Part shown: positions 33,433 through 53,470 of the stretch, one piece after another
Numbering within the stretch: the stretch's first letter is position 1
Layout of the letters: the number at the start of each line of letters is the position of its first letter
Assembly: GCA_003666485.1 (NCBI GenBank)
Contig: CP032931.1
Span: 186,001-250,000 of the forward strand
DNA from: Levilactobacillus brevis
GTDB taxonomy: Bacteria; Bacillota; Bacilli; Lactobacillales; Lactobacillaceae
DNA: 64,000 nt
Direction: 5' to 3'
Program-made: the position numbers and the translations under genes
Notes under the pieces: generated by a model
Database searches by the model: none
The model's input: only the letters and a program-made list of their open reading frames with translations
Told to the model about the DNA's origin: nothing

Positions 33433-33855
33433 TTAAGCCGTTTGGTCAGCGGCTGTGTCGCGCAAATTGGACGGCACAAAGCTATCGGGTTCGTGGTTCT
33501 TCATGATGGACGCGTAGTGGTCCACCTTAAAGTTGATGGTTGACAAGTGATGTTGCAAGTCAGCGATTTCGCTCAGCGTTCGTTCCTGTTGCGCTTGCAT
33601 CATGGCGTAGCGCTCGGGAACGGTACTGTCACCTTCTTGGACTAAGTCGAGGTAGTGATGGATCCGTTCGACGGGCATTCCGGTGCCACGGAGGCAAACG
33701 ATGATGTGCAGCCATTCCAGGTCGACATCGTTAAAGACGCGGTTGTTGTTCTCATCACGTTGGACGTAGGGCAACATACCATGGTCGTGGTAATAACGAA
33801 TGCTGTAAGTGGAGATGCCCAGCTTTTGGGCAACTTCGTGGATGGTATAAGACAC
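33433..33855 (-). CDS. MerR-family transcriptional regulator
   Basis: 140 residues: N-terminal HTH YTIHEVAQKLGISTYSIRYYHDHGMLP and a C-terminal coiled-coil dimer helix. No Cys-based metal site is visible, so a drug- or stress-responsive subgroup is likely. Upstream of an efflux gene on the same strand, a usual MerR target layout. Confidence 0.9.
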   Translation of the reverse strand: MSYTIHEVAQKLGISTYSIRYYHDHGMLPYVQRDENNNRVFNDVDLEWLHIIVCLRGTGMPVERIHHYLDLVQEGDSTVPERYAMMQAQQERTLSEIADLQHHLSTINFKVDHYASIMKNHEPDSFVPSNLRDTAADQTA

Positions 33856-34025
33856 GCGAGTTTCCTCCTTTTAGGGTTAGCGTTCGACTAACTGTAAGTG
33901 ATGTTTTCTATCATACGCGTCCAATCTCCTCGGCGCAAGCATTTGTCTTGGAAATTTGGGCAAAGCGCTTGCCTTCAAGTAGGGCGAAGGGGGTACACTA
34001 CGGTAAGCAGAAAGGTGGTGGGGGT

Positions 34026-34712
34026 GTGAAACAATTTAATGTCCAACGGGCTGGCGCGGATTTTGTGCCGCTATTGCCGTGGTCAACGGATCCGGCGGTA
34101 AGTGCGGCGGCGTTAGTGGGGCCTGATGTGCGGGACTTGTTGGTCATCGACGAGGCGACCGATGAACTGACCATCGTGCCACAAGTATCCGTCGAGACAC
34201 TACTGGAACGGCTGTCACACAGCGTTTATGGCCGCATCGCTAGTCAGCTGATGACGGCTTGGCCATTGACGCGCGACCCAACCACGCCCGCGACGTATTT
34301 ACTGACTGACTTGGCCGTCACGGACCACGCCACGCTGCTAGCAACCACGGGCGCGCTGGTCGCGTTGATGGTCACGCAGCATAAAGGGTCCAGTTCACCA
34401 GCGCGATTGGCCGGTATGGCGGGACAGGCCCAGTGCTGGCTTCAGCAGATGGGGTTGTCGGAACATCAGTTATTGCTACCGGCCGGCGTGACCGCCCTAC
34501 GTCAATTGTTCCAGCAGTTAGTGGACCAGGACGCCAGTTGCGACGTGTACGTACCGGTGGGCTGTGACACCCGCGCTGGCAGATTGGCCCAGGAGGCTAC
34601 GTCCCTGGCGGCCGGCCGGCTGAAGGCGCTGACGTTGCCCACTTCCTGGCAGTTATTGCGGGTAGCCGGAACAGAACGCCAACTAAAACGAGATGAACGT
34701 AATAGTCATTAA
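34026..34712 (+). CDS. Conserved-looking protein of unknown function
   Basis: 228 residues from a GTG at 34026 with AAAGGTGGTGGG upstream; the longer frame from 33948 is less likely. Soluble, rich in Ala/Leu/Thr, no signal peptide or membrane helix. Starts KQFNVQRAGADFVPLLPWSTD; a single Cys lies in SCDVYVPVGCDTRAGRLAQ. Divergent from the merR gene and followed by a terminator. No family recognised. Confidence 0.6.
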   Translation: MKQFNVQRAGADFVPLLPWSTDPAVSAAALVGPDVRDLLVIDEATDELTIVPQVSVETLLERLSHSVYGRIASQLMTAWPLTRDPTTPATYLLTDLAVTDHATLLATTGALVALMVTQHKGSSSPARLAGMAGQAQCWLQQMGLSEHQLLLPAGVTALRQLFQQLVDQDASCDVYVPVGCDTRAGRLAQEATSLAAGRLKALTLPTSWQLLRVAGTERQLKRDERNSH

Positions 34713-43397: not shown

Positions 43398-46300
43398 ATG
43401 AAACAGAAGCATGAACCATATGCCATTGGATTAGACATTGGGACCAGCTCTATCGGTTGGACCACTGCTGACATGAACGGCTATGTGACACGAACCAAGG
43501 GCCAAACGGGGTTGGGGGTTCGGTTATTTCAGGAAGGTCAGACAGCAGCTGAACGACGGGGATTCCGGACCACTCGACGACGATTGAGTCGGCGTCGTTG
43601 GCGGTTACGATTGTTACGAGAGATTTTCGATGAACCGATTTCATCTATTGACGAAAACTTCTTTGCACGTCAGAAAGTTTCTAATGTGTCGCCCAAGGAC
43701 AGCAGATTTACGAATAAGTATCAGCTTTTTGATAATCAAATAGATCATGAATTTTATTCAAAGTACCCGACTATTTATCACTTGCGTTGGCAATTGATGA
43801 CGGAACATCGAAAATTTGATTTACGCGAAATTTATTTGGCTATCCACCACATTGTGAAGTATCGGGGGAATTTTTTACGTTCAGGTAGTCCAGCTGGTTT
43901 TAAACCGGGAGAACTAGACTTTAAAAAACGCTTTGCGTCTGTGAATGATACTTGGCGCGTGATTTTTGACGAGGCGGCGCCACAGTTGCCAGAGGCTAAT
44001 TTAGAAAAGATTACAGCTTTGATTCTGGATAACAACCGTAGTCGATTGGATCGACAACGGGAGCTTGTGAAATTACTGATGGCCGTAACTGGTGAGAATA
44101 AGAATTGGAAGACGAATTTTACTGAATTTTCTAAGGCAATTCTAGGATTAAAGGCTAAATTATTTTTATTGACAGGCACGCAGGTGGATAAGGCTGATGA
44201 GAAAACATGGACCTTTAGCTTAGCTGATATTGAAGATCATCGAGCAGATTTGGAAAGTGCGTTCGACGATGCAGCGTTGGAGCTGATTGAAAAATTAGGT
44301 GACCTTCAAGCTGCCATTCAGTTAACTGAGATCATGCCTAGCGGTCAATATTTCTCACAGAGCATGTGTGAGCGCTACGAGGATCATGCGAAGCATCTTA
44401 AGTGGTTACGGGAGTATATTGATCAACAAACAGATGCCAAGAAAGCCCAAGCCATTCAAGTAGCTTACGACCATTACATTGATGGTAAAGACGGTAAAGC
44501 AGTTACCCAGACAGATTTCTACAAAGATTTGAATAAAGTTTTGAAAAATGATGATTCTGAGTTAGCTGTTAAAATCAGTAATGAGATTGAATTAGAGCAT
44601 TTTATGCCTAAACAACGGACAAAAGAAAACGGAGTTATTCCTTATCAAGTGCATCAGCAAGAATTAGATATGATTATTGATAATCAAAAATCCTACTATC
44701 CCTTCCTAAGTGAGCCTAATCCAATTGTTGGACACCGGGCAACGCAACCTTACAAAATTGATGAATTAGTAAGCTTCCGTGTGCCTTATTACGTGGGGCC
44801 GATGGTGACACCTGAGGTACAATCCAAGACTGAGAATGCTGAAAATCAATTTTCCTGGATGGTACGTAAAGATGCTGGTGACATCACACCGTGGAACTTC
44901 GATGATAAGGTTGACAGGATTGCTTCAGCGACGAACTTTATTCAGCGTATGAAGACGACAGATACGTACCTCATTGGTGAGGATGTCTTACCACAACGAA
45001 GCCTTATTTATCAGCGCTTTACAGTTCTGAACGAATTAAATAACGTTCGGGTAAATGGTAAGCCATTGACTCGTAATCAGAAACAACGAATTTATGAAAA
45101 ATTATTTGTGGGTCGTAAGAATCATGGCACTGTCAGTATCAAGGCGTTACAGGAAAACCTGGTTCATAGTGGAGAAGTACTCACCACGCCTAAAATTGAA
45201 GGGTTAGCTGATCCTAAACACTTTAATAATGCATTAACTACGTATCATGACTTTAAAGATTTGTTGCCAGATGATATTGATCTGCCGGAACGACAAGCAG
45301 ATATTGAAAAGATTATTAATTGGTCAACCGTTTTTGAGGATACAGATATCCTTAGAGAAAAGCTACGAGAGATTGACTGGTTAAGTGACTTGCAACGGAA
45401 ACGACTCAGTCAAAAGCGCTATCGTGGCTGGGGACGACTGTCAGCACGTTTGTTAACTGGTATCAAGGATGCTCAAGGACTGTCGATCTTAGACCAGTTA
45501 TGGCAGACACAATTGAACTTTATGCAGATTGTTAGCCAACCAGACTATGCGAAAGCCATTGCTGAAATTAATGCAGCGGGGATGGCAAAGCAAGATGTGC
45601 TGGATACGATTAATGAGATGTATACGTCACCGCAAAACAAAAAGGCCTTACGCCAGATTTTGTTGGTAGTGCGAGATATCCAAAAAGCCCATCATGGGCA
45701 GGCGCCTAGTCGAATCTTCATCGAGGCGGCACGTGGTGCTGAACAAAATCCACAGCGGACACGACAACGGCAGAAGCATCTCAGTGATCTGTATGCTGAT
45801 CAAGCAAAGCAAATTATCGACGATGCGGTTAAAACGGAACTTGGGGATAAAATCAAGAATAAAGCGCAGTTTACCACGCGGCTAATGCTTTATTTCTTGC
45901 AAAATGGTCGAGATATGTATACGGGTAAGCGCCTGAATATTGATGCATTATCGATGTATGATATTGACCATATTTTACCGCAGTCGTTAGTTAAAGATGA
46001 TTCGTTGGATAATCGGGTATTGGTAAGTCAAAAAATTAATCGGACAAAGAATGATACATTTGCTTCAGAGCTTTTTGAAAATAACATGCGTGGCACATGG
46101 GAGCGCTGGCGTTCATCGGGCTTAATTAGTGCACGTAAGCTCAAACACTTATTAATGCGGCCAAATGAGATCAATAAATATGCAACTGGGTTTATTAATC
46201 GGCAATTGGTTGAGACACGCCAGGTCATTAAGTTAGTTACAGATGTGCTGAGCACTGAATTCGATTCGGAGGCAACCAAAATTATTTCGGTTAAGGCCGG

Positions 46301-47510
46301 TCTGACGCATCAATTACGCCAGGAGTTGATGCTGCCTAAGTTGCGTGAGTTAAATGATTACCACCATGCCATCGATGCTTTTTTAGCAGTCCGGATTGGG
46401 ACTTATTTGCTGAAACGTTATCCTAAGTTGGAACGATTCTTTGTCTATGGTCAGTACAAGGTTGCACCACAGATAGATTTACGCCGGTTTAACTTTATTC
46501 ATGATTTAGTTACAGATAAGGTGGATAAGATTACTGATCCGCAAACTGGTGAGATTCTTTGGGATCGAGAAAATGACGTGGCGTATGTGAAACATCTAAT
46601 GAGCTTGAAGCATTTGTTGGTTACGCATGAGGTGCTTGAGGACCATGGGGCTTTATTTAATCAGACGATTTATAAGGCAGTTATGGATAAGCAAAATCCT
46701 GGAGAAGCTAAGCATAAGCGTGATTTGATTCCTGCTAAAAAGAATCGTGAGACAACAATTTATGGTGGCTATTCTGGGCAAAAAACAACTTATTTAGCAA
46801 TTGTTCGTGTGAATGGTAAAAATCCGTCGTTCAAAGTAGTAGGGGTACGTACTAATATGCTCGAACGACTGAGACAATTGCAATATAAGTCTGGTTTGAC
46901 GTTGAATCAAGCAACTAAGCAGGTGCTGATGCCGCAGTTCACAGATGCTAAAGGAAAGGTTAAAGATTTTGATGTCCTGCTGCCTGAGGTTTATTTACAT
47001 CAACGGGTACAAGATATTGTTGATGGAAAGCGGTATCAGTTCGGGTTAAACACAAATACCTATTACCGAAATTTCCAACAATTAGTGTTACCGCTAGGGC
47101 TACAGATTGAGTTGCAATTTTCTAAGGAAGACTTAAAGAAAGATACGTTAATGAAGATTTTTGACGAGATTTGTGCGCAGATGGAAAAGTACTTTGCACT
47201 TTATAGCAAAGTGAACAATTTTACCGATATTTTAGTCAATTCACGAGAAGCGTTCAGTAAATTGCCAATTCAGGATGTTTGTGATGCTCATGGAAAGGTT
47301 ACTCAGCCGGGTATGAAATCGACATTAATAGATATCATGATGGGATTGCATAGTAATATGGCCAGGAAGCCCCTTAAGCAATTAGGATTTAAGACGCCAT
47401 TTGGTTTTTTACAGGTGCCGTCGGGAATTAGTTTGACAGCTCAAGCCCAAATCGTCTACGAATCACCAACAGGACTCTTTAAGCGATGCATCAAGTTAGC
47501 AGATCTTTAG
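43398..47510 (+). CDS. cas9: CRISPR-associated endonuclease Cas9 (type II-A)
   Basis: RNA-guided double-strand DNA nuclease of the interference step. 1370 residues. RuvC-I YAIGLDIGTSSIGW with D13; Arg-rich bridge helix (about 54-78, RRGFRTTRRRLSRRRWR); RuvC-II IFIEAARG with E776; HNH with D857-H858 in YDIDHILPQS and later NRTKND; RuvC-III YHHAIDAFLAV with H990 and D993. All catalytic residues are present and length is normal, so it looks active. RBS AAGGAGG. Codon and base composition are more A+T-rich than the surrounding chromosome, a sign of transfer. Confidence 0.98.
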   Translation: MKQKHEPYAIGLDIGTSSIGWTTADMNGYVTRTKGQTGLGVRLFQEGQTAAERRGFRTTRRRLSRRRWRLRLLREIFDEPISSIDENFFARQKVSNVSPKDSRFTNKYQLFDNQIDHEFYSKYPTIYHLRWQLMTEHRKFDLREIYLAIHHIVKYRGNFLRSGSPAGFKPGELDFKKRFASVNDTWRVIFDEAAPQLPEANLEKITALILDNNRSRLDRQRELVKLLMAVTGENKNWKTNFTEFSKAILGLKAKLFLLTGTQVDKADEKTWTFSLADIEDHRADLESAFDDAALELIEKLGDLQAAIQLTEIMPSGQYFSQSMCERYEDHAKHLKWLREYIDQQTDAKKAQAIQVAYDHYIDGKDGKAVTQTDFYKDLNKVLKNDDSELAVKISNEIELEHFMPKQRTKENGVIPYQVHQQELDMIIDNQKSYYPFLSEPNPIVGHRATQPYKIDELVSFRVPYYVGPMVTPEVQSKTENAENQFSWMVRKDAGDITPWNFDDKVDRIASATNFIQRMKTTDTYLIGEDVLPQRSLIYQRFTVLNELNNVRVNGKPLTRNQKQRIYEKLFVGRKNHGTVSIKALQENLVHSGEVLTTPKIEGLADPKHFNNALTTYHDFKDLLPDDIDLPERQADIEKIINWSTVFEDTDILREKLREIDWLSDLQRKRLSQKRYRGWGRLSARLLTGIKDAQGLSILDQLWQTQLNFMQIVSQPDYAKAIAEINAAGMAKQDVLDTINEMYTSPQNKKALRQILLVVRDIQKAHHGQAPSRIFIEAARGAEQNPQRTRQRQKHLSDLYADQAKQIIDDAVKTELGDKIKNKAQFTTRLMLYFLQNGRDMYTGKRLNIDALSMYDIDHILPQSLVKDDSLDNRVLVSQKINRTKNDTFASELFENNMRGTWERWRSSGLISARKLKHLLMRPNEINKYATGFINRQLVETRQVIKLVTDVLSTEFDSEATKIISVKAGLTHQLRQELMLPKLRELNDYHHAIDAFLAVRIGTYLLKRYPKLERFFVYGQYKVAPQIDLRRFNFIHDLVTDKVDKITDPQTGEILWDRENDVAYVKHLMSLKHLLVTHEVLEDHGALFNQTIYKAVMDKQNPGEAKHKRDLIPAKKNRETTIYGGYSGQKTTYLAIVRVNGKNPSFKVVGVRTNMLERLRQLQYKSGLTLNQATKQVLMPQFTDAKGKVKDFDVLLPEVYLHQRVQDIVDGKRYQFGLNTNTYYRNFQQLVLPLGLQIELQFSKEDLKKDTLMKIFDEICAQMEKYFALYSKVNNFTDILVNSREAFSKLPIQDVCDAHGKVTQPGMKSTLIDIMMGLHSNMARKPLKQLGFKTPFGFLQVPSGISLTAQAQIVYESPTGLFKRCIKLADL

Positions 47511-47521
47511 ACTGCTGAAAT

Positions 47522-47677
47522 AAAAAAAGTGTGCACCCAGAAAACTCCGGCGTGCACACACTACATATGTAATGGCTCGATAACGGGCTCATAAGATGAA
47601 ACTTGGCGGGAAAAACCACCTTGTTTGACTTTAACTCAGTTCTGCAAATCAGTGAGGTCAAGCAGGTCAACTTGACC
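47522..47677 (-). ncRNA. tracrRNA
   Basis: The plus strand at about 47634-47663 (AGTTCTGCAAATCAGTGAGG and on) matches the CRISPR repeat, so the minus-strand transcript carries the anti-repeat. Order on the minus strand: 5' hairpin GGTCAAgTTGACC, anti-repeat, bulge, GTTAAAGTC, GGTGG/CCGCC nexus-like hairpin, TACATATGTA hairpin, then a terminator GTGTGCAC...GTGCACAC with T7 at 47522-47528. Predicted length about 156 nt. It is antisense to the cas9-cas1 intergenic transcript. Confidence 0.88.
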
Positions 47678-47683
47678 AATAAC

Positions 47684-47712
47684 AGAATACCATGTTGCAA
47701 CGTATAACGCAA
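47684..47712 (-). promoter_or_regulatory. tracrRNA promoter
   Basis: TTGCGT (47707-47712), 17-bp spacer, extended -10 TGGTATTCT (hexamer 47684-47689) on the minus strand. It overlaps the ribosome-binding region of cas1 on the other strand. Confidence 0.75.
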
Positions 47713-47724
47713 GGAGGATAAATG

Positions 47725-48546
47725 ATGGGATGGCGAACAATCATGATCAGCCAGCACGCTAAAGTCTCGCTGACTGCAGGTAACTTAGTAATTCAAACGG
47801 ATTCGGACCGACTACATGTGCCGGTGGATCAAGTGAATGTCTTACTGATTCAGACACTACAAGCGGTGATCACGACTGCAGCGGTAGCGGCTTTGACCGA
47901 AGAACACGTAAAGATTATTTTTACCGGAAGAGATGGCCAGCCCATTTGCGAGACTGCCGAGTGTTATCCCCGCTTGCGGACGGCAGCCTTGGTTACCTCT
48001 CAAGTAAATTGGCCCCATGACCGCATTGCTAATTTGTGGACGAGAGTGGTTGCAGCTAAGATGGCTAATCAAATTACCGTGGCCGATTTTCTTGGTGCGG
48101 AGACACAGGGATTAAGAGACGAGGTAGATAAATTAGAATTGAATGATACCACTAACCGAGAAGCAGTAGTTGCCAGACAATATTTTCCACTGCTTTTTGG
48201 TGAGGACTTTTCGCGGTCGGATTTAGTTCCAGAGAATGCGGCTTTAAACTACGGCTATTCAATTCTATTATCGCTAGTTGACCGAGTGATTGTCTCACGT
48301 GGATATCTAACCTGTTTTGGCATTCATCACAAGAATGCAGGGAATGGCTTTAATCTGGGCTCTGACTTGATGGAACCCTTTCGACCAATCATTGATTATT
48401 GGGTTGCCCAGCAAAAGATCAATGACCTAACCCCAGACGTGAAGTTTGGCTTGGTTCGGCTGTTTGACTTGGAAATGATCTATCAAGGGAAGAAGGAGCT
48501 CTTTAGTAATGTCGTGGAGAAGTACGTTGGGCAATGCCTAAAGTAA
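47725..48546 (+). CDS. cas1: CRISPR integrase Cas1, C-terminally truncated by an IS element
   Basis: Spacer-integration nuclease. 273 residues from ATG 47725 (family start MGWRT; AAGGAGG seven bases upstream). Catalytic residues look present: Glu in TNREAVVARQYFP (about 146), His in FGIHHKNAGNGFNLG (about 201) and Glu/Asp in SDLMEPFRPIID (about 213-217). The stop TAA at 48544-48546 is completed by the first base of the inserted IS. Without the IS the frame continues through 49600-49684, adding 28 residues (first YLNAEMDQIRIEVEV), and would have overlapped cas2. Activity of the shortened protein is uncertain. Confidence 0.93.
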   Translation: MGWRTIMISQHAKVSLTAGNLVIQTDSDRLHVPVDQVNVLLIQTLQAVITTAAVAALTEEHVKIIFTGRDGQPICETAECYPRLRTAALVTSQVNWPHDRIANLWTRVVAAKMANQITVADFLGAETQGLRDEVDKLELNDTTNREAVVARQYFPLLFGEDFSRSDLVPENAALNYGYSILLSLVDRVIVSRGYLTCFGIHHKNAGNGFNLGSDLMEPFRPIIDYWVAQQKINDLTPDVKFGLVRLFDLEMIYQGKKELFSNVVEKYVGQCLK

Positions 48547-49599
48547 CGCGTTGTGCTAGCTTCGTAATATTTTCAATTGATCTTAAGTCCGCTTAATCCT
48601 TCTGCCAATTGCTGATGAACTTTAATGACATTCCAGAGAAAAAGCGTTGATAACCGGCTGTTAAGGCCACTCATCGTATCAGTCCCTGGGTGTTCAAAGT
48701 GTCCGACCTTGTTCAAGTTACTAAAACAAGTCTCGATGTGCCGCCGCTGATTCTTCAAGAATGCTGAGTTGACTTGCTTACTGTGTCGCATGTTCTTTCG
48801 CAATGGAAACCACAGATGAATCCCAAACTCTTGTCTGAGAAACTGTTGCTGCGGGCGGCTTAAGTAACCGCCATCTGCTAAAACGTACTTTGCCGGAGCT
48901 TCACGTAGTAATTCGATTGTGACTTTACGATCGTCCACGGAAGCTGGTGTTAGTTCCCAATCAATGAAGTACCCGTCATTACTCATGACGGCATGGAGCT
49001 TGAAGCCGTAGTAATAGACCCGTTTGGTGGCATTATAGCCTTTATTGGCAATGCCTTTTAACACCTTGGCACGATTGCTTCGCCGTGCAGAAACTAAGGT
49101 GATTGGGGCGCTGTCAATGATCTCATAGACAGACTCGTGCCGGTAACGCTTGAGCATCCAAATACGAATGAGCTTGAGAGCCATCGTTAGCTGACGGCAA
49201 CGCCGATTGTAACGGGTCCGTTCTGGAACCCGGATCCCGGAAGCGATGAGATTCCGATGAAACTGGGCTTCGGACACTTCACGCAAGTCTATTCGAGCTA
49301 ACATGCAGGCAATGATGACTACATCACTAGTTTTAAGTTCACGATAATTGCACCGAAAGCGAAACCTTTTGGCTAACTGATTGTAATATGGCTGGACAAT
49401 TTTGATGAATTTCATGACAGAGACTTGAATTGGATTGAATTTTGCGATAACTTTAGGGAGGCCTAGCATTTACGGTTCTTCTTTCTTGGTTTCGTCGCCA
49501 TAGAAGTTACCGCAAATGCGGGCTTTTTGCATGCATTAGGACTTAAGCTTGTTATTCAATTTTTAAAATATTACATTACTAGCACTACGCGTTAAAGTA
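48539..49599. mobile_element. IS982-like insertion sequence with 7-bp target duplication
   Basis: Element 48546-49592 (1047 bp) has terminal inverted repeats ACGCGTTGTGCTAG (left) and ACGCGTAGTGCTAG (right, complement), extending imperfectly further in. Direct repeats TAAAGTA flank it at 48539-48545 and 49593-49599. It carries one transposase gene on the minus strand. Inserted at the cas1 3' end, separating cas1 from cas2. Its right end holds a small terminator (CCGCAAATGCGG then T5, about 49510-49528) and a possible outward promoter (TTGTTA-17-TACATT, 49549-49577). Confidence 0.93.
48573..49469 (-). CDS. IS982-family-like DDE transposase
   Basis: 298 residues, complete. N-terminal DNA-binding region, then a DDE nuclease domain: first Asp in YEIIDSAPITL, YYYGFKLHAVMSNDGYF, second Asp in KYVLADGGYLS and Glu in RRHIETCFSNLNK. 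Length and motif context fit the IS982 family. It is opposite to the cas genes. Frame is intact, so the element may still move. Confidence 0.88.
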   Translation of the reverse strand: MLGLPKVIAKFNPIQVSVMKFIKIVQPYYNQLAKRFRFRCNYRELKTSDVVIIACMLARIDLREVSEAQFHRNLIASGIRVPERTRYNRRCRQLTMALKLIRIWMLKRYRHESVYEIIDSAPITLVSARRSNRAKVLKGIANKGYNATKRVYYYGFKLHAVMSNDGYFIDWELTPASVDDRKVTIELLREAPAKYVLADGGYLSRPQQQFLRQEFGIHLWFPLRKNMRHSKQVNSAFLKNQRRHIETCFSNLNKVGHFEHPGTDTMSGLNSRLSTLFLWNVIKVHQQLAEGLSGLKIN

Positions 49600-49646
49600 T
49601 TTAAACGCAGAAATGGATCAGATTAGAATCGAGGTTGAAGTTCCCA

Positions 49647-49967
49647 ATGAGGTATCAAATTATGCGATTAATGATTATGTTTGATTTACCAATGGTGAGT
49701 AGCGAGGATCGACGGAACTATAGACATTTTCGAAAGGCGTTGATTTCTGAAGGATTCTTTATGATGCAGTTTTCTGTCTACGTACGTGTTTGTGCTAATT
49801 CTAAGAATGCCAAAGCTGTTGAACAACGGATTGCGGCTATCACACCGAAAGAAGGGCTAGTGCAATCAGTCATGCTGACGGAGAAACAATACCAAGCCAT
49901 GCATTTTATTTCGGGGGAACCCAACCGTGATATTATCAATTCAGCGGAAAGGACGATTATGATATGA
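49647..49967 (+). CDS. cas2: CRISPR-associated protein Cas2
   Basis: Structural partner of Cas1 in spacer integration. 106 residues from ATG 49647, giving MRYQIMRLMIMFDLPM as in type II-A Cas2; the TTG at 49635 directly abuts GAGG and is rejected. Contains the ferredoxin-like first strand and FDLP with the conserved Asp. csn2 overlaps its end by 4 bp. Because of the IS, it is now cut off from the cas9-cas1 transcript and must rely on another promoter. Confidence 0.93.
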   Translation: MRYQIMRLMIMFDLPMVSSEDRRNYRHFRKALISEGFFMMQFSVYVRVCANSKNAKAVEQRIAAITPKEGLVQSVMLTEKQYQAMHFISGEPNRDIINSAERTIMI

Positions 49968-50629
49968 ACGTGACCTATTATAGTTTCCCACCGTTCTCTG
50001 TGCAGCCAGGAAAGATTACGGTGATTGATACCGGGTCACAGCGAATTTATCGTAACTTGACTGCCGGTGTTCAAGGAAAGGCGGACACAGTCAAGGTGAG
50101 CGATGACGATTTTGCATCGGTACCAGCCAAGATGGGTCCACAGTGGTTCGGGGACCCGATGTTGACGTTGAATTTGAACGATCTATTTCAGCGTAAGTTG
50201 CAGGCTCAACTCGTCAAACTGTTAGCTGATAACCAGACGGTAAAATTAGCCGATGGATTACGTGAGCTTCTATCACAAATGTTAGCGGATAGCTACTTAA
50301 TGGACGTGCCAATGGAGTTACCAACAATTCCTGAGATTGCCAAGTTAGTGAAATTCAGTGGAATTCAGCTGGCACCTGACATCCAGGAAAATCCGTATGG
50401 TATAATCGAGACGTTAGTTAAGGTGCTTTTAGAGTTGCATGATCAACACATGATTGTTTTGACCAATGTTAGCCATTATCTTCAGGTCAGCCAGCTGAAA
50501 ATGTTGGTGAGGTTTATGGCTAACGTTGATTTGCCGCTTCTTCTAATTGAATTTTCACCTATTCGTCGTAAAGACTACTTCGGGGGATGCGATTACCACT
50601 ACATCGATAGCGATTTTGTCCTCTGGTAA
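49964..50629 (+). CDS. csn2: CRISPR-associated protein Csn2
   Basis: Ring-forming DNA-end-binding protein needed for spacer acquisition in type II-A systems. 221 residues; the weakly conserved alpha/beta fold shows NLNDLFQRKLQAQLVKLL near the middle and HDQHMIVLTNVSHYLQVSQL towards the end. Overlaps cas2 by 4 bp and is directly followed by the array, the standard II-A position. Confidence 0.9.
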   Translation: MNVTYYSFPPFSVQPGKITVIDTGSQRIYRNLTAGVQGKADTVKVSDDDFASVPAKMGPQWFGDPMLTLNLNDLFQRKLQAQLVKLLADNQTVKLADGLRELLSQMLADSYLMDVPMELPTIPEIAKLVKFSGIQLAPDIQENPYGIIETLVKVLLELHDQHMIVLTNVSHYLQVSQLKMLVRFMANVDLPLLLIEFSPIRRKDYFGGCDYHYIDSDFVLW

Positions 50630-50663
50630 GAATTTATGATGAGATATTAGTGTGAAAATAACG
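50630..50663 (+). promoter_or_regulatory. Short CRISPR leader
   Basis: Only 34 bp, A+T-rich, separate the csn2 stop from the first repeat. TATGAT at 50635-50640 could be a -10, but no convincing -35 is seen; a promoter may lie in the csn2 3' end. The repeats at this end are uniform and those at the other end decay, so this is the leader side. Confidence 0.6.
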
Positions 50664-53470
50664 GCTTTAGAAGTTCTGTAAATCAGTAAGGTCAAGAACA
50701 GCTGGATGGCCAGCACTACGACGCCTATCGCTTTAGAAGTTCTGTAAATCAGTAAGGTCAAGAACTGAGACGACTAAACGTTTTCTGAAGTGGTTGCTTT
50801 AGAAGTTCTGTAAATCAGTAAGGTCAAGAACTTGTCCCAATCAATAGCAAGATTAATTTTAGCTTTAGAAGTTCTGTAAATCAGTAAGGTCAAGAACCTT
50901 CCGTAGTTTTATCTGCAACGGATAGGTGCTTTAGAAGTTCTGTAAATCAGTAAGGTCAAGAACGCCCTGGTTGCCGTCAACAACCCCGTAGGCGCTTTAG
51001 AAGTTCTGTAAATCAGTAAGGTCAAGAACGGTGTTGTGGGACACCGAAGTCTTTAGAGTGCTTTAGAAGTTCTGTAAATCAGTAAGGTCAAGAACACAAA
51101 CAGTGCTTGCAGTAGGCTTACAACGGCTTTAGAAGTTCTGTAAATCAGTAAGGTCAAGAACTCAACTCGTCAGATTTGTGCCATGATATACGCTTTAGAA
51201 GTTCTGTAAATCAGTAAGGTCAAGAACGCCAAGGGCTACTTGCGGTTAAACGGATGCGCTTTAGAAGTTCTGTAAATCAGTAAGGTCAAGAACTTAATCT
51301 CCTCTTTTTTGGGTTTAAGTATGGCTTTAGAAGTTCTGTAAATCAGTAAGGTCAAGAACTGTGGGATCACCATGGGAGTCCCACCAACCGCTTTAGAAGT
51401 TCTGTAAATCAGTAAGGTCAAGAACCAAAGAGCACTCGCAAGGACTTGGGAAAGCGCTTTAGAAGTTCTGTAAATCAGTAAGGTCAAGAACCCACGGGAA
51501 CCGTTACTGGTGTGTGCGTCGGCTTTAGAAGTTCTGTAAATCAGTAAGGTCAAGAACCATCCCCATCATGATGGCCTTTCAGAAATGCTTTAGAAGTTCT
51601 GTAAATCAGTAAGGTCAAGAACACGCTGTTCGGAGAATCTGCGGGGATGTAAGCTTTAGAAGTTCTGTAAATCAGTAAGGTCAAGAACTAAGTCAAACTA
51701 CACCGGGCGCCTGGCATCGCTTTAGAAGTTCTGTAAATCAGTAAGGTCAAGAACCAATGACCTGATTGACATCGACAATTACCTGCTTTAGAAGTTCTGT
51801 AAATCAGTAAGGTCAAGAACGGACAATTTAAGATATGTTAAGAATCATGAGCTTTAGAAGTTCTGTAAATCAGTAAGGTCAAGAACAAAAATATAAGACA
51901 AGAAATAAAGAGACTTGCTTTAGAAGTTCTGTAAATCAGTAAGGTCAAGAACGGGCCGTGGGTGGGACAAACTCACGGTTGCGCTTTAGAAGTTCTGTAA
52001 ATCAGTAAGGTCAAGAACACTGGGTTTATGACTGTTACACTTTATGGCGCTTTAGAAGTTCTGTAAATCAGTAAGGTCAAGAACACCCGAGCCAAAACCA
52101 GTGCCTGGTTGGGGGCTTTAGAAGTTCTGTAAATCAGTAAGGTCAAGAACGCGGCGGTGTCGGCCATGCTTTTAAGTGGGGCTTTAGAAGTTCTGTAAAT
52201 CAGTAAGGTCAAGAACCCGGCGGGCGTTGAGTACGATTTGGCGGGGGCTTTAGAAGTTCTGTAAATCAGTAAGGTCAAGAACGGGAGTTATTCTAGTACC
52301 ATCGAAAGAATTGCTTTAGAAGTTCTGTAAATCAGTAAGGTCAAGAACGCCAAGTAATGCAAGACGCCCACATCGTTGGCTTTAGAAGTTCTGTAAATCA
52401 GTAAGGTCAAGAACAATCAAACTTACTGGAACGCTTCTTAGGGTGCTTTAGAAGTTCTGTAAATCAGTAAGGTCAAGAACATTGCAGGTGCTTTACGTAG
52501 AGGCATACAAGCTTTAGAAGTTCTGTAAATCAGTAAGGTCAAGAACTCACCGGGTGCAGTTCGATGTTGCGCTTGTGCTTTAGAAGTTCTGTAAATCAGT
52601 AAGGTCAAGAACTTTATCTAGGGGGGTGCAGACATGATTGATGCTTTAGAAGTTCTGTAAATCAGTAAGGTCAAGAACACCAATTTGTCCGCATCCCCAA
52701 ATGCTACAGCTTTAGAAGTTCTGTAAATCAGTAAGGTCAAGAACAAGAAGAATTCAATCGCATGGGTGTTTCTGGCTTTAGAAGTTCTGTAAATCAGTAA
52801 GGTCAAGAACTTACGGGCGTAAGTCGCCTTTTGGTTCCCTGCTTTAGAAGTTCTGTAAATCAGTAAGGTCAAGAACCGATGCTTCAGTCTTTTAATCCAC
52901 AGATGAGCTTTAGAAGTTCTGTAAATCAGTAAGGTCAAGAACCGCCGTATGGGCTTGCCCCTGTGCTGGCTAGCTTTAGAAGTTCTGTAAATCAGTAAGG
53001 TCAAGAACTAAAGTTAAACGATTCGTTTAGTTGGAAGGGCTTTAGAAGTTCTGTAAATCAGTAAGGTCAAGAACTCGGTTTTAAGCCGACGGAGGAAGAC
53101 GTAGGCTTTAGAAGTTCTGTAAATCAGTAAGGTCAAGAACCGCAATGCCCGCAAGCACATGTATGGAGGTGCTTTAGAAGTTCTGTAAATCAGTAAGGTC
53201 AAGAACCATCCCCATCATGACGGCCTTTCAGCAATCGCTTTAGAAGTTCTGTAAATCAGTAAGGTCAAGAACCGCAGTAGTCAAACAGATTGACGAGCAG
53301 AAGCTTTAGAAGTTCTGTAAATCAATAAGGTCAAGAACTACTTGTGCACCCGCGGCATATGCTTTTCCGCTTTAGAAATTCTGTAAATCAGTAAGGTCAA
53401 GAGCTACTGCCCTGCAATTCCATAAGGGGCTGTGTTTTAAAAATTTTGCAAATCAATGAAGGTCATCGTC
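50664..53470 (+). CRISPR. CRISPR array, type II-A, 42 repeats plus a degenerate terminal repeat
   Basis: 36-bp repeat starting GCTTTAGAAGTTCTGTAAAT and ending AAGGTCAAGAAC, period 66 (30-bp spacers; spacer 14 is 29). First repeat 50664-50699; repeats 1-40 agree at every position checked; repeat 41 (53303) has one change, repeat 42 (53369-53404) two, and a decayed last unit follows at 53434-53470 after a 29-bp spacer. So 42 spacers in all. Orientation: leader by csn2, transcription on the plus strand, consistent with the minus-strand tracrRNA. Spacers 14 and 39 are near-identical. Confidence 0.97.

What the first reader, a model, noticed from the sequence alone, without database searches (positions are those of the whole stretch)
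47725..49684. IS insertion has cut the end off cas1 and split cas1 from cas2
The cas1 stop TAA (48544-48546) is made of two bases of the 7-bp target duplication and the first base of the IS. Joining 48545 to 49600 keeps the frame open and adds 28 residues (from YLNAEMDQIRIEVEV to a TGA at 49682-49684), giving about 301 residues and a 38-base overlap with cas2, a natural II-A layout. So spacer acquisition may be lost or reduced while cas9, tracrRNA and array stay intact. This would be a clear case of an adaptation module disabled in a system still able to interfere.
Basis: partly seen in the sequence, partly recalled or inferred. Interest (0 to 1): 0.85.

Follow-up and report, generated by a model that had tools for sequence, protein, structure and literature searches.

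The report
Jumping gene clips CRISPR cas1 end
A mobile DNA element landed near the end of the gene for the CRISPR memory-writing enzyme Cas1 in a food-type lactic acid bacterium; it clips a short tail off the enzyme and separates it from its partner genes, which may weaken memory-making but leaves the cutting part intact, a fairly ordinary kind of accident.

Summary
A 1,047-bp IS982-family element (48546-49592, minus strand) with a 7-bp TAAAGTA duplication sits in the only cas1 of a Levilactobacillus genome, inside an otherwise complete type II-A locus. The closest relative (probably L. brevis; Cas1 96% identical) has the uninterrupted site with one TAAAGTA, and all 10 close genus relatives have a homologous 28-residue end. 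The insertion looks recent. "Adaptation disabled" is not shown: all five catalytic residues and nearly all of the last predicted helix remain, and cas2 and csn2 are intact. The last 13 lost codons overlap cas2; their third positions are 94.5% identical over 40 loci (body 40.4%), so their conservation mostly reflects cas2. But the tail is not obviously dispensable: 79 of 79 open homologues among 80 loci have at least 14 residues past the cut, about 16 of the lost residues are confidently modelled in a close homologue, and most solved II-A chains are nearly complete. Losing cas1-cas2 coupling may matter as much. Best reading: a young lesion that probably reduces spacer acquisition while interference remains possible. 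Broken cas1 genes are not rare (5 of 89 Lactobacillaceae matches, this one included, contain in-frame stops). Ordinary; low interest.

The parts
43398..47510 (+). cas9, 1,370 aa, open from end to end
   Evidence: TIGR01865 over the full profile; PADLOC Cas9
47522..47668 (-). tracrRNA (approximate limits): anti-repeat 47633-47668, then terminator-like stem and T run ending at 47522; same layout in G005
   Evidence: repeat/anti-repeat duplex -41.6 kcal/mol; G005 intergenic region compared by eye
47722..48546 (+). cas1, truncated: 274 codons from 47722 (273 from 47725), stop made at the IS junction
48539..48545 (.). left copy of the 7-bp target duplication TAAAGTA
48546..49592 (-). IS982-family insertion sequence, 1,047 bp, imperfect inverted ends
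48573..49469 (-). IS982 transposase, 298 aa, open reading frame intact
49593..49599 (.). right copy of the target duplication TAAAGTA
49600..49684 (+). detached 3' end of cas1 (one split codon, 27 full codons and TGA), still open and homologous to relatives
49647..49967 (+). cas2, intact; its start overlaps the last 38 bases of the old cas1 frame
49964..50629 (+). csn2, 221 aa, intact
50630..50663 (+). leader between csn2 and first repeat, nearly the same as in G005
50664..53404 (+). CRISPR array, 42 repeats of 36 bp and 41 spacers (40 of 30 bp, one of 29); 40 of 42 repeats identical, the last two vary

Best explanation
A young IS982-family transposition cut the last 28 codons off the only cas1 of a type II-A CRISPR-Cas locus and put 1 kb of IS, with its transposase facing against the operon, between cas1 and the overlapping cas2-csn2 pair. 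Shown: the insertion, the loss of the tail, the intact sequence of every other part, and signs that the event is recent. Inferred: spacer acquisition is reduced, through loss of a tail that all open homologues examined carry and through loss of the tight cas1-cas2 coupling, while Cas9 interference with the 41 stored spacers remains possible. Whether acquisition is abolished or only lowered is open.
For: Exact duplication and IS ends; uninterrupted site in G005; tail homologous in 10 of 10 close relatives; at least 14 residues past the cut in all 79 open homologues of 80 loci; residues 271-280 and 281-290 of a close homologue modelled with mean pLDDT 96 and 84; 18 of the first 21 PDB matches, all from the entries of the five type II-A Cas1 sequences (one entry, 9vja, is titled 'Type I-A'), have 285-289 residues in the library, so the short tail is probably ordered there (that this length is the resolved length is my reading); no other cas1 in the genome. 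Youth: the transposase differs from a sister copy by 21 silent and 5 changed codons (dN 0.007, dS 0.115), so that divergence arose under selection, most simply before landing; of 11 Cas1 differences to G005, 3 are changed on this branch, 5 on the G005 branch, 3 unresolved by G030.
Against: The five catalytic residues named for S. pyogenes Cas1 (E149, H205, D217, E220, R223) are all present before the cut (147, 203, 215, 218, 221 here), and in the model of a close homologue the last helix ends at 276 and 294-302 is below pLDDT 50. The tail outside the cas2 overlap is less conserved as protein (42.4% identity) than the body (56.5%). No terminator-like site was found in 48400-50700 (0 found, 1.9 expected), so read-through into cas2-csn2 is possible. 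Cas1 shows no relaxed constraint on this branch, which also fits a working Cas1. No acquisition or expression data exist here.
Confidence: 0.6

Rival explanations
1. Adaptation still works near normally: the clipped tail is an accessory, Cas1 1-274 assembles with Cas2, and cas2-csn2 are transcribed by read-through across the IS.
For: Catalytic residues and nearly all of the helices lie before the cut; overlap part of the tail conserved for cas2 rather than Cas1; one natural cas1 copy (G073:C5) stops at codon 294 inside the tail, though that genome has a second cas1; no terminator-like site in the IS region; no relaxed constraint on this branch.
Against: No open homologue of the 79 ends with fewer than 14 residues after this point; residues up to about 290 are confidently modelled; most solved II-A chains are nearly complete; 88 of 89 close family matches run to residue 296 or beyond.
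Confidence: 0.25
2. The main effect is on expression, not on the Cas1 protein: the IS and its opposing transcript starve cas2 and csn2 of transcript or translation, so adaptation fails even if the clipped Cas1 is active. (This overlaps with the best explanation, so the odds do not add to one.)
For: cas2 starts 38 bases inside the old cas1 end; cas1 translation now stops 1.1 kb upstream; the + strand from 48546 to 49700 carries 17, 28 and 32 stops in its three frames; the transposase points against the operon.
Against: Only sequence layout; no terminator-like site. A chance-level promoter-like match lies at 49600-49629 (6 found, 4.2 expected in the region).
Confidence: 0.3
3. The join is an assembly error caused by a multi-copy IS.
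For: Five copies of the IS in the genome.
Against: The copy in cas1 differs at 32 alignment positions from each of the four others and has its own 7-bp duplication; the assembly has 5 contigs.
Confidence: 0.02

Closest known systems
Type II-A CRISPR-Cas of Levilactobacillus and relatives (cas9-tracrRNA-cas1-cas2-csn2-array)
   Same: Gene order, repeat, leader and tracrRNA much as in G005; the 38-base cas1/cas2 overlap layout is seen in relatives
   Different: cas1 is cut by an IS here; 28 residues lost
IS982-family insertion sequences (e.g. the element on L. brevis plasmid CP079700.1, 68.1% identical)
   Same: Transposase family and about 1 kb length; inverted ends and 6-7 bp duplications seen for the window genome's copies
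   Different: In the 34 other genus genomes the two long matches are only 68-69% identical (G005, G014); shorter pieces reach 79%, and very short ones more. It may be an unnamed member.
Streptococcus mutans UA159 type I-C system with truncated Cas1
   Same: Described as probably inactive because of truncated cas1 (and cas8c in one paper) (passages only, PMC7316486 and PMC9522601)
   Different: Type I-C, and the gene cas8c is also truncated; here the effector gene is intact and only the Cas1 tail is lost

Membership tests
Type II-A CRISPR-Cas | cas9, cas1, cas2 and csn2 in one locus | tested here: met
   (cas1 truncated)
Type II-A CRISPR-Cas | repeat-spacer array and matching tracrRNA anti-repeat | tested here: met
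Type II-A CRISPR-Cas | functional adaptation and interference | not testable with these tools
   needs phage or plasmid challenge
IS982 family | IS982 transposase | tested here: met
   NF033520, 202.2 bits against a cut-off of 130
IS982 family | inverted ends and short target duplication | tested here: met
   5 of 5 genomic copies flanked by 6- or 7-bp duplications, read by eye from the flanks
Inactivated Cas1 | loss of sequence present in open relatives | tested here: met
Inactivated Cas1 | loss of catalytic residues or of the main fold | tested here: not met
   the five catalytic residues lie before the cut, the last helix (261-276) loses two residues
Inactivated Cas1 | loss of acquisition activity | not testable with these tools
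   needs experiment

The most novel reading that the evidence does not exclude
Probability: 0.06. Interest if true: 0.5.

Novelty: new member of a known kind. Interest (0 to 1): 0.24.

Why it matters
It is a clean natural truncation that asks one testable question: does type II-A Cas1 need its C-terminal tail? The tail is present in every open homologue examined, yet the conservation of its last half in lactobacilli comes mostly from overlapping cas2. The case also warns that a shortened cas1 in an annotation does not by itself mean a dead adaptation module. Otherwise IS damage to a cas gene is ordinary.

Tried and rejected
Rejected: natural early stop (relatives run on); second cas1 in the genome (the second match was checked and is the detached tail); old decaying insertion; Cas9-Cas1 fusion suggested by a 1,805-aa open frame in G056 (the frame is mostly masked N). 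Led nowhere: the first genome-contig scan found no relative; the first relatives' alignment used the wrong strand for most loci (redone); the array against phages gave only weak hits; no spacer of the window was found in the relatives' loci then held (L007-L028), so the array could not be used to date the insertion; promoter scan near chance level; the papers opened on type II-A integrase gave no direct statement on the Cas1 tail in the passages and sections seen; the per-residue data of PMC12216489 are in supplements that were not readable here.

Full report
What is there. The window lies on a 2.99-Mb contig of a 3.10-Mb, five-contig genome. The nearest genome, G005, is probably L. brevis: its IS982 hit has the same coordinates (33439-34486) and bit score as that on L. 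brevis strain M10 plasmid CP079700.1. The locus reads cas9 (43398-47510), tracrRNA on the minus strand, cas1, IS, cas2, csn2, a 34-base leader and an array of 42 repeats and 41 spacers.

The IS occupies 48546-49592 and is flanked by TAAAGTA on both sides. Its transposase belongs to the IS982 family (202.2 bits, cut-off 130). Four other copies exist in the genome; they differ from one another by at most one base, each has a 6-bp duplication of the form TA..TA (read by eye), and each differs from the cas1 copy at 32 alignment positions. The stop is made exactly at the junction, so the clipped protein has no foreign residues.

Relatives. Of 35 genus genomes, 13 matched Cas1; two of these are distant (31-33% identity) and one is the window's own, leaving 10 close relatives. 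All 10 have a 301-302-codon cas1 with a homologous end; one of them, G033, has an in-frame stop at codon 116. G005 shows the uninterrupted site with a single TAAAGTA. In 397 genomes of the family, 156 matched; of the 89 listed matches with E at or below 9.2e-82 (counted by eye from a list that is cut at its weak end), 88 run to residue 296 or beyond and only the window's stops at 275; five of the 89 contain an in-frame stop (G000 itself, G033, G372, G073, G106). Among 80 named loci, 79 had an open cas1 (L066, stopped after 93 residues, was left out of the tail count); all 79 have 14 to 28 residues past the cut. These 80 are the best of 524 matches to a 302-residue query, which may favour long forms.

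What the tail is. In an AlphaFold2 model of L. wangkuiensis Cas1 (mean pLDDT 88.0) the last helix spans 261-276. Block means are 96 for 271-280, 84 for 281-290, 47 for 291-300 and 29 for 301-302; 294-302 is below 50. The cut after residue 274 therefore spares the main fold but removes about 16 confidently placed residues and about 12 that look disordered. The five catalytic residues listed for S. pyogenes Cas1 (section 7 of PMC12216489 read) are all present before it (mapped through an S. anginosus Cas1). Across the 40 loci with a tail of exactly 28 residues (780 pairs; the 39 other open loci were left out), protein identity is 56.5% in the body, 42.4% in 275-289 and 58.2% in 290-302; third-position identity is 40.4%, 45.1% and 94.5%. 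The last part is thus held by the overlapping cas2 start, not mainly by Cas1. On the other side, 18 of the first 21 PDB matches, all from entries of the five type II-A Cas1 sequences, have 285-289 residues; the others have 281, 282 and 259; sequence lengths are 288-302, tags probably included. So the short tail is usually ordered there. In the E. coli type I-E system a Cas1 C-terminal tail protects the PAM end of the prespacer (passages of PMC10011333). The tail may therefore matter.

Age. The transposase of this copy differs from a sister copy by 21 silent and 5 changed codons (dN 0.007, dS 0.115), which points to divergence before it landed here. The target duplication is perfect. Cas1 against G005 has dN 0.018 and dS 1.21; of 11 differences 3 are new on this branch, 5 on the G005 branch and 3 are not resolved by G030. 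All of this fits a recent event; it would also fit a Cas1 still under selection.

Function. The genome has no other Cas1 by protein or Pfam search; a search with the intact G005 Cas1 finds the truncated gene and the detached tail only. cas2 now starts 1.1 kb after the cas1 stop. No terminator-like site was found in 48400-50700, and promoter-like sites are near chance level (6 against 4.2). I give 0.6 to a real reduction of acquisition, by the lost tail, the split from cas2, or both; these causes overlap with the expression rival. Interference should be unaffected as far as sequence tells: cas9, tracrRNA and array are intact. This was not tested.

Known cases. A truncated Cas1 is named as a cause of a probably inactive type I-C system in S. 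mutans UA159 (passages), and truncated cas1 is described in B. fragilis type I-B loci (passages). My searches for IS-cut or truncated cas1 showed no title or abstract start reporting one in a type II-A lactobacillus; most of those papers were not opened, so this is no proof of absence. The event is a new example of a known kind.

Noticed in passing
L162 (G033:C17:66446-67342); L158 (G372, apparently the same record as L066, Ligilactobacillus acidipiscis): Two other Lactobacillaceae cas1 genes carry in-frame TAG stops, at codons 116 and 94; draft assemblies, so sequencing error is not excluded.
   Followed up: partly
L159 (G073:C5:35183-36088): A cas1 copy stops at codon 294, inside the cas2-overlapping tail; the genome holds a second cas1 match.
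   Followed up: partly
window 52283-52312 (spacer 25): Near-match (26 bases, 96%) to L. brevis phages JNU_P2 and JNU_P4 (E 0.9) and to 9 other genus genomes; the three matching loci scanned each hold a tRNA gene nearby. A 24-base core also has a second place in the own genome with 3 mismatches.
   Followed up: partly
window spacers 14 (from 51558) and 39 (from 53207): Two spacers far apart in the array are nearly the same sequence, as if taken from related elements at different times.
   Followed up: no
window 47522-49469, minus strand: The IS transposase points towards the tracrRNA on the same strand, so read-through could run antisense over cas1 into tracrRNA.
   Followed up: no
nine genomes of genus g4: Cas1 matches at 35-40% identity each report one TAG inside a match that starts at residue 1 or 2; possibly a stop just before the true start.
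   Followed up: no
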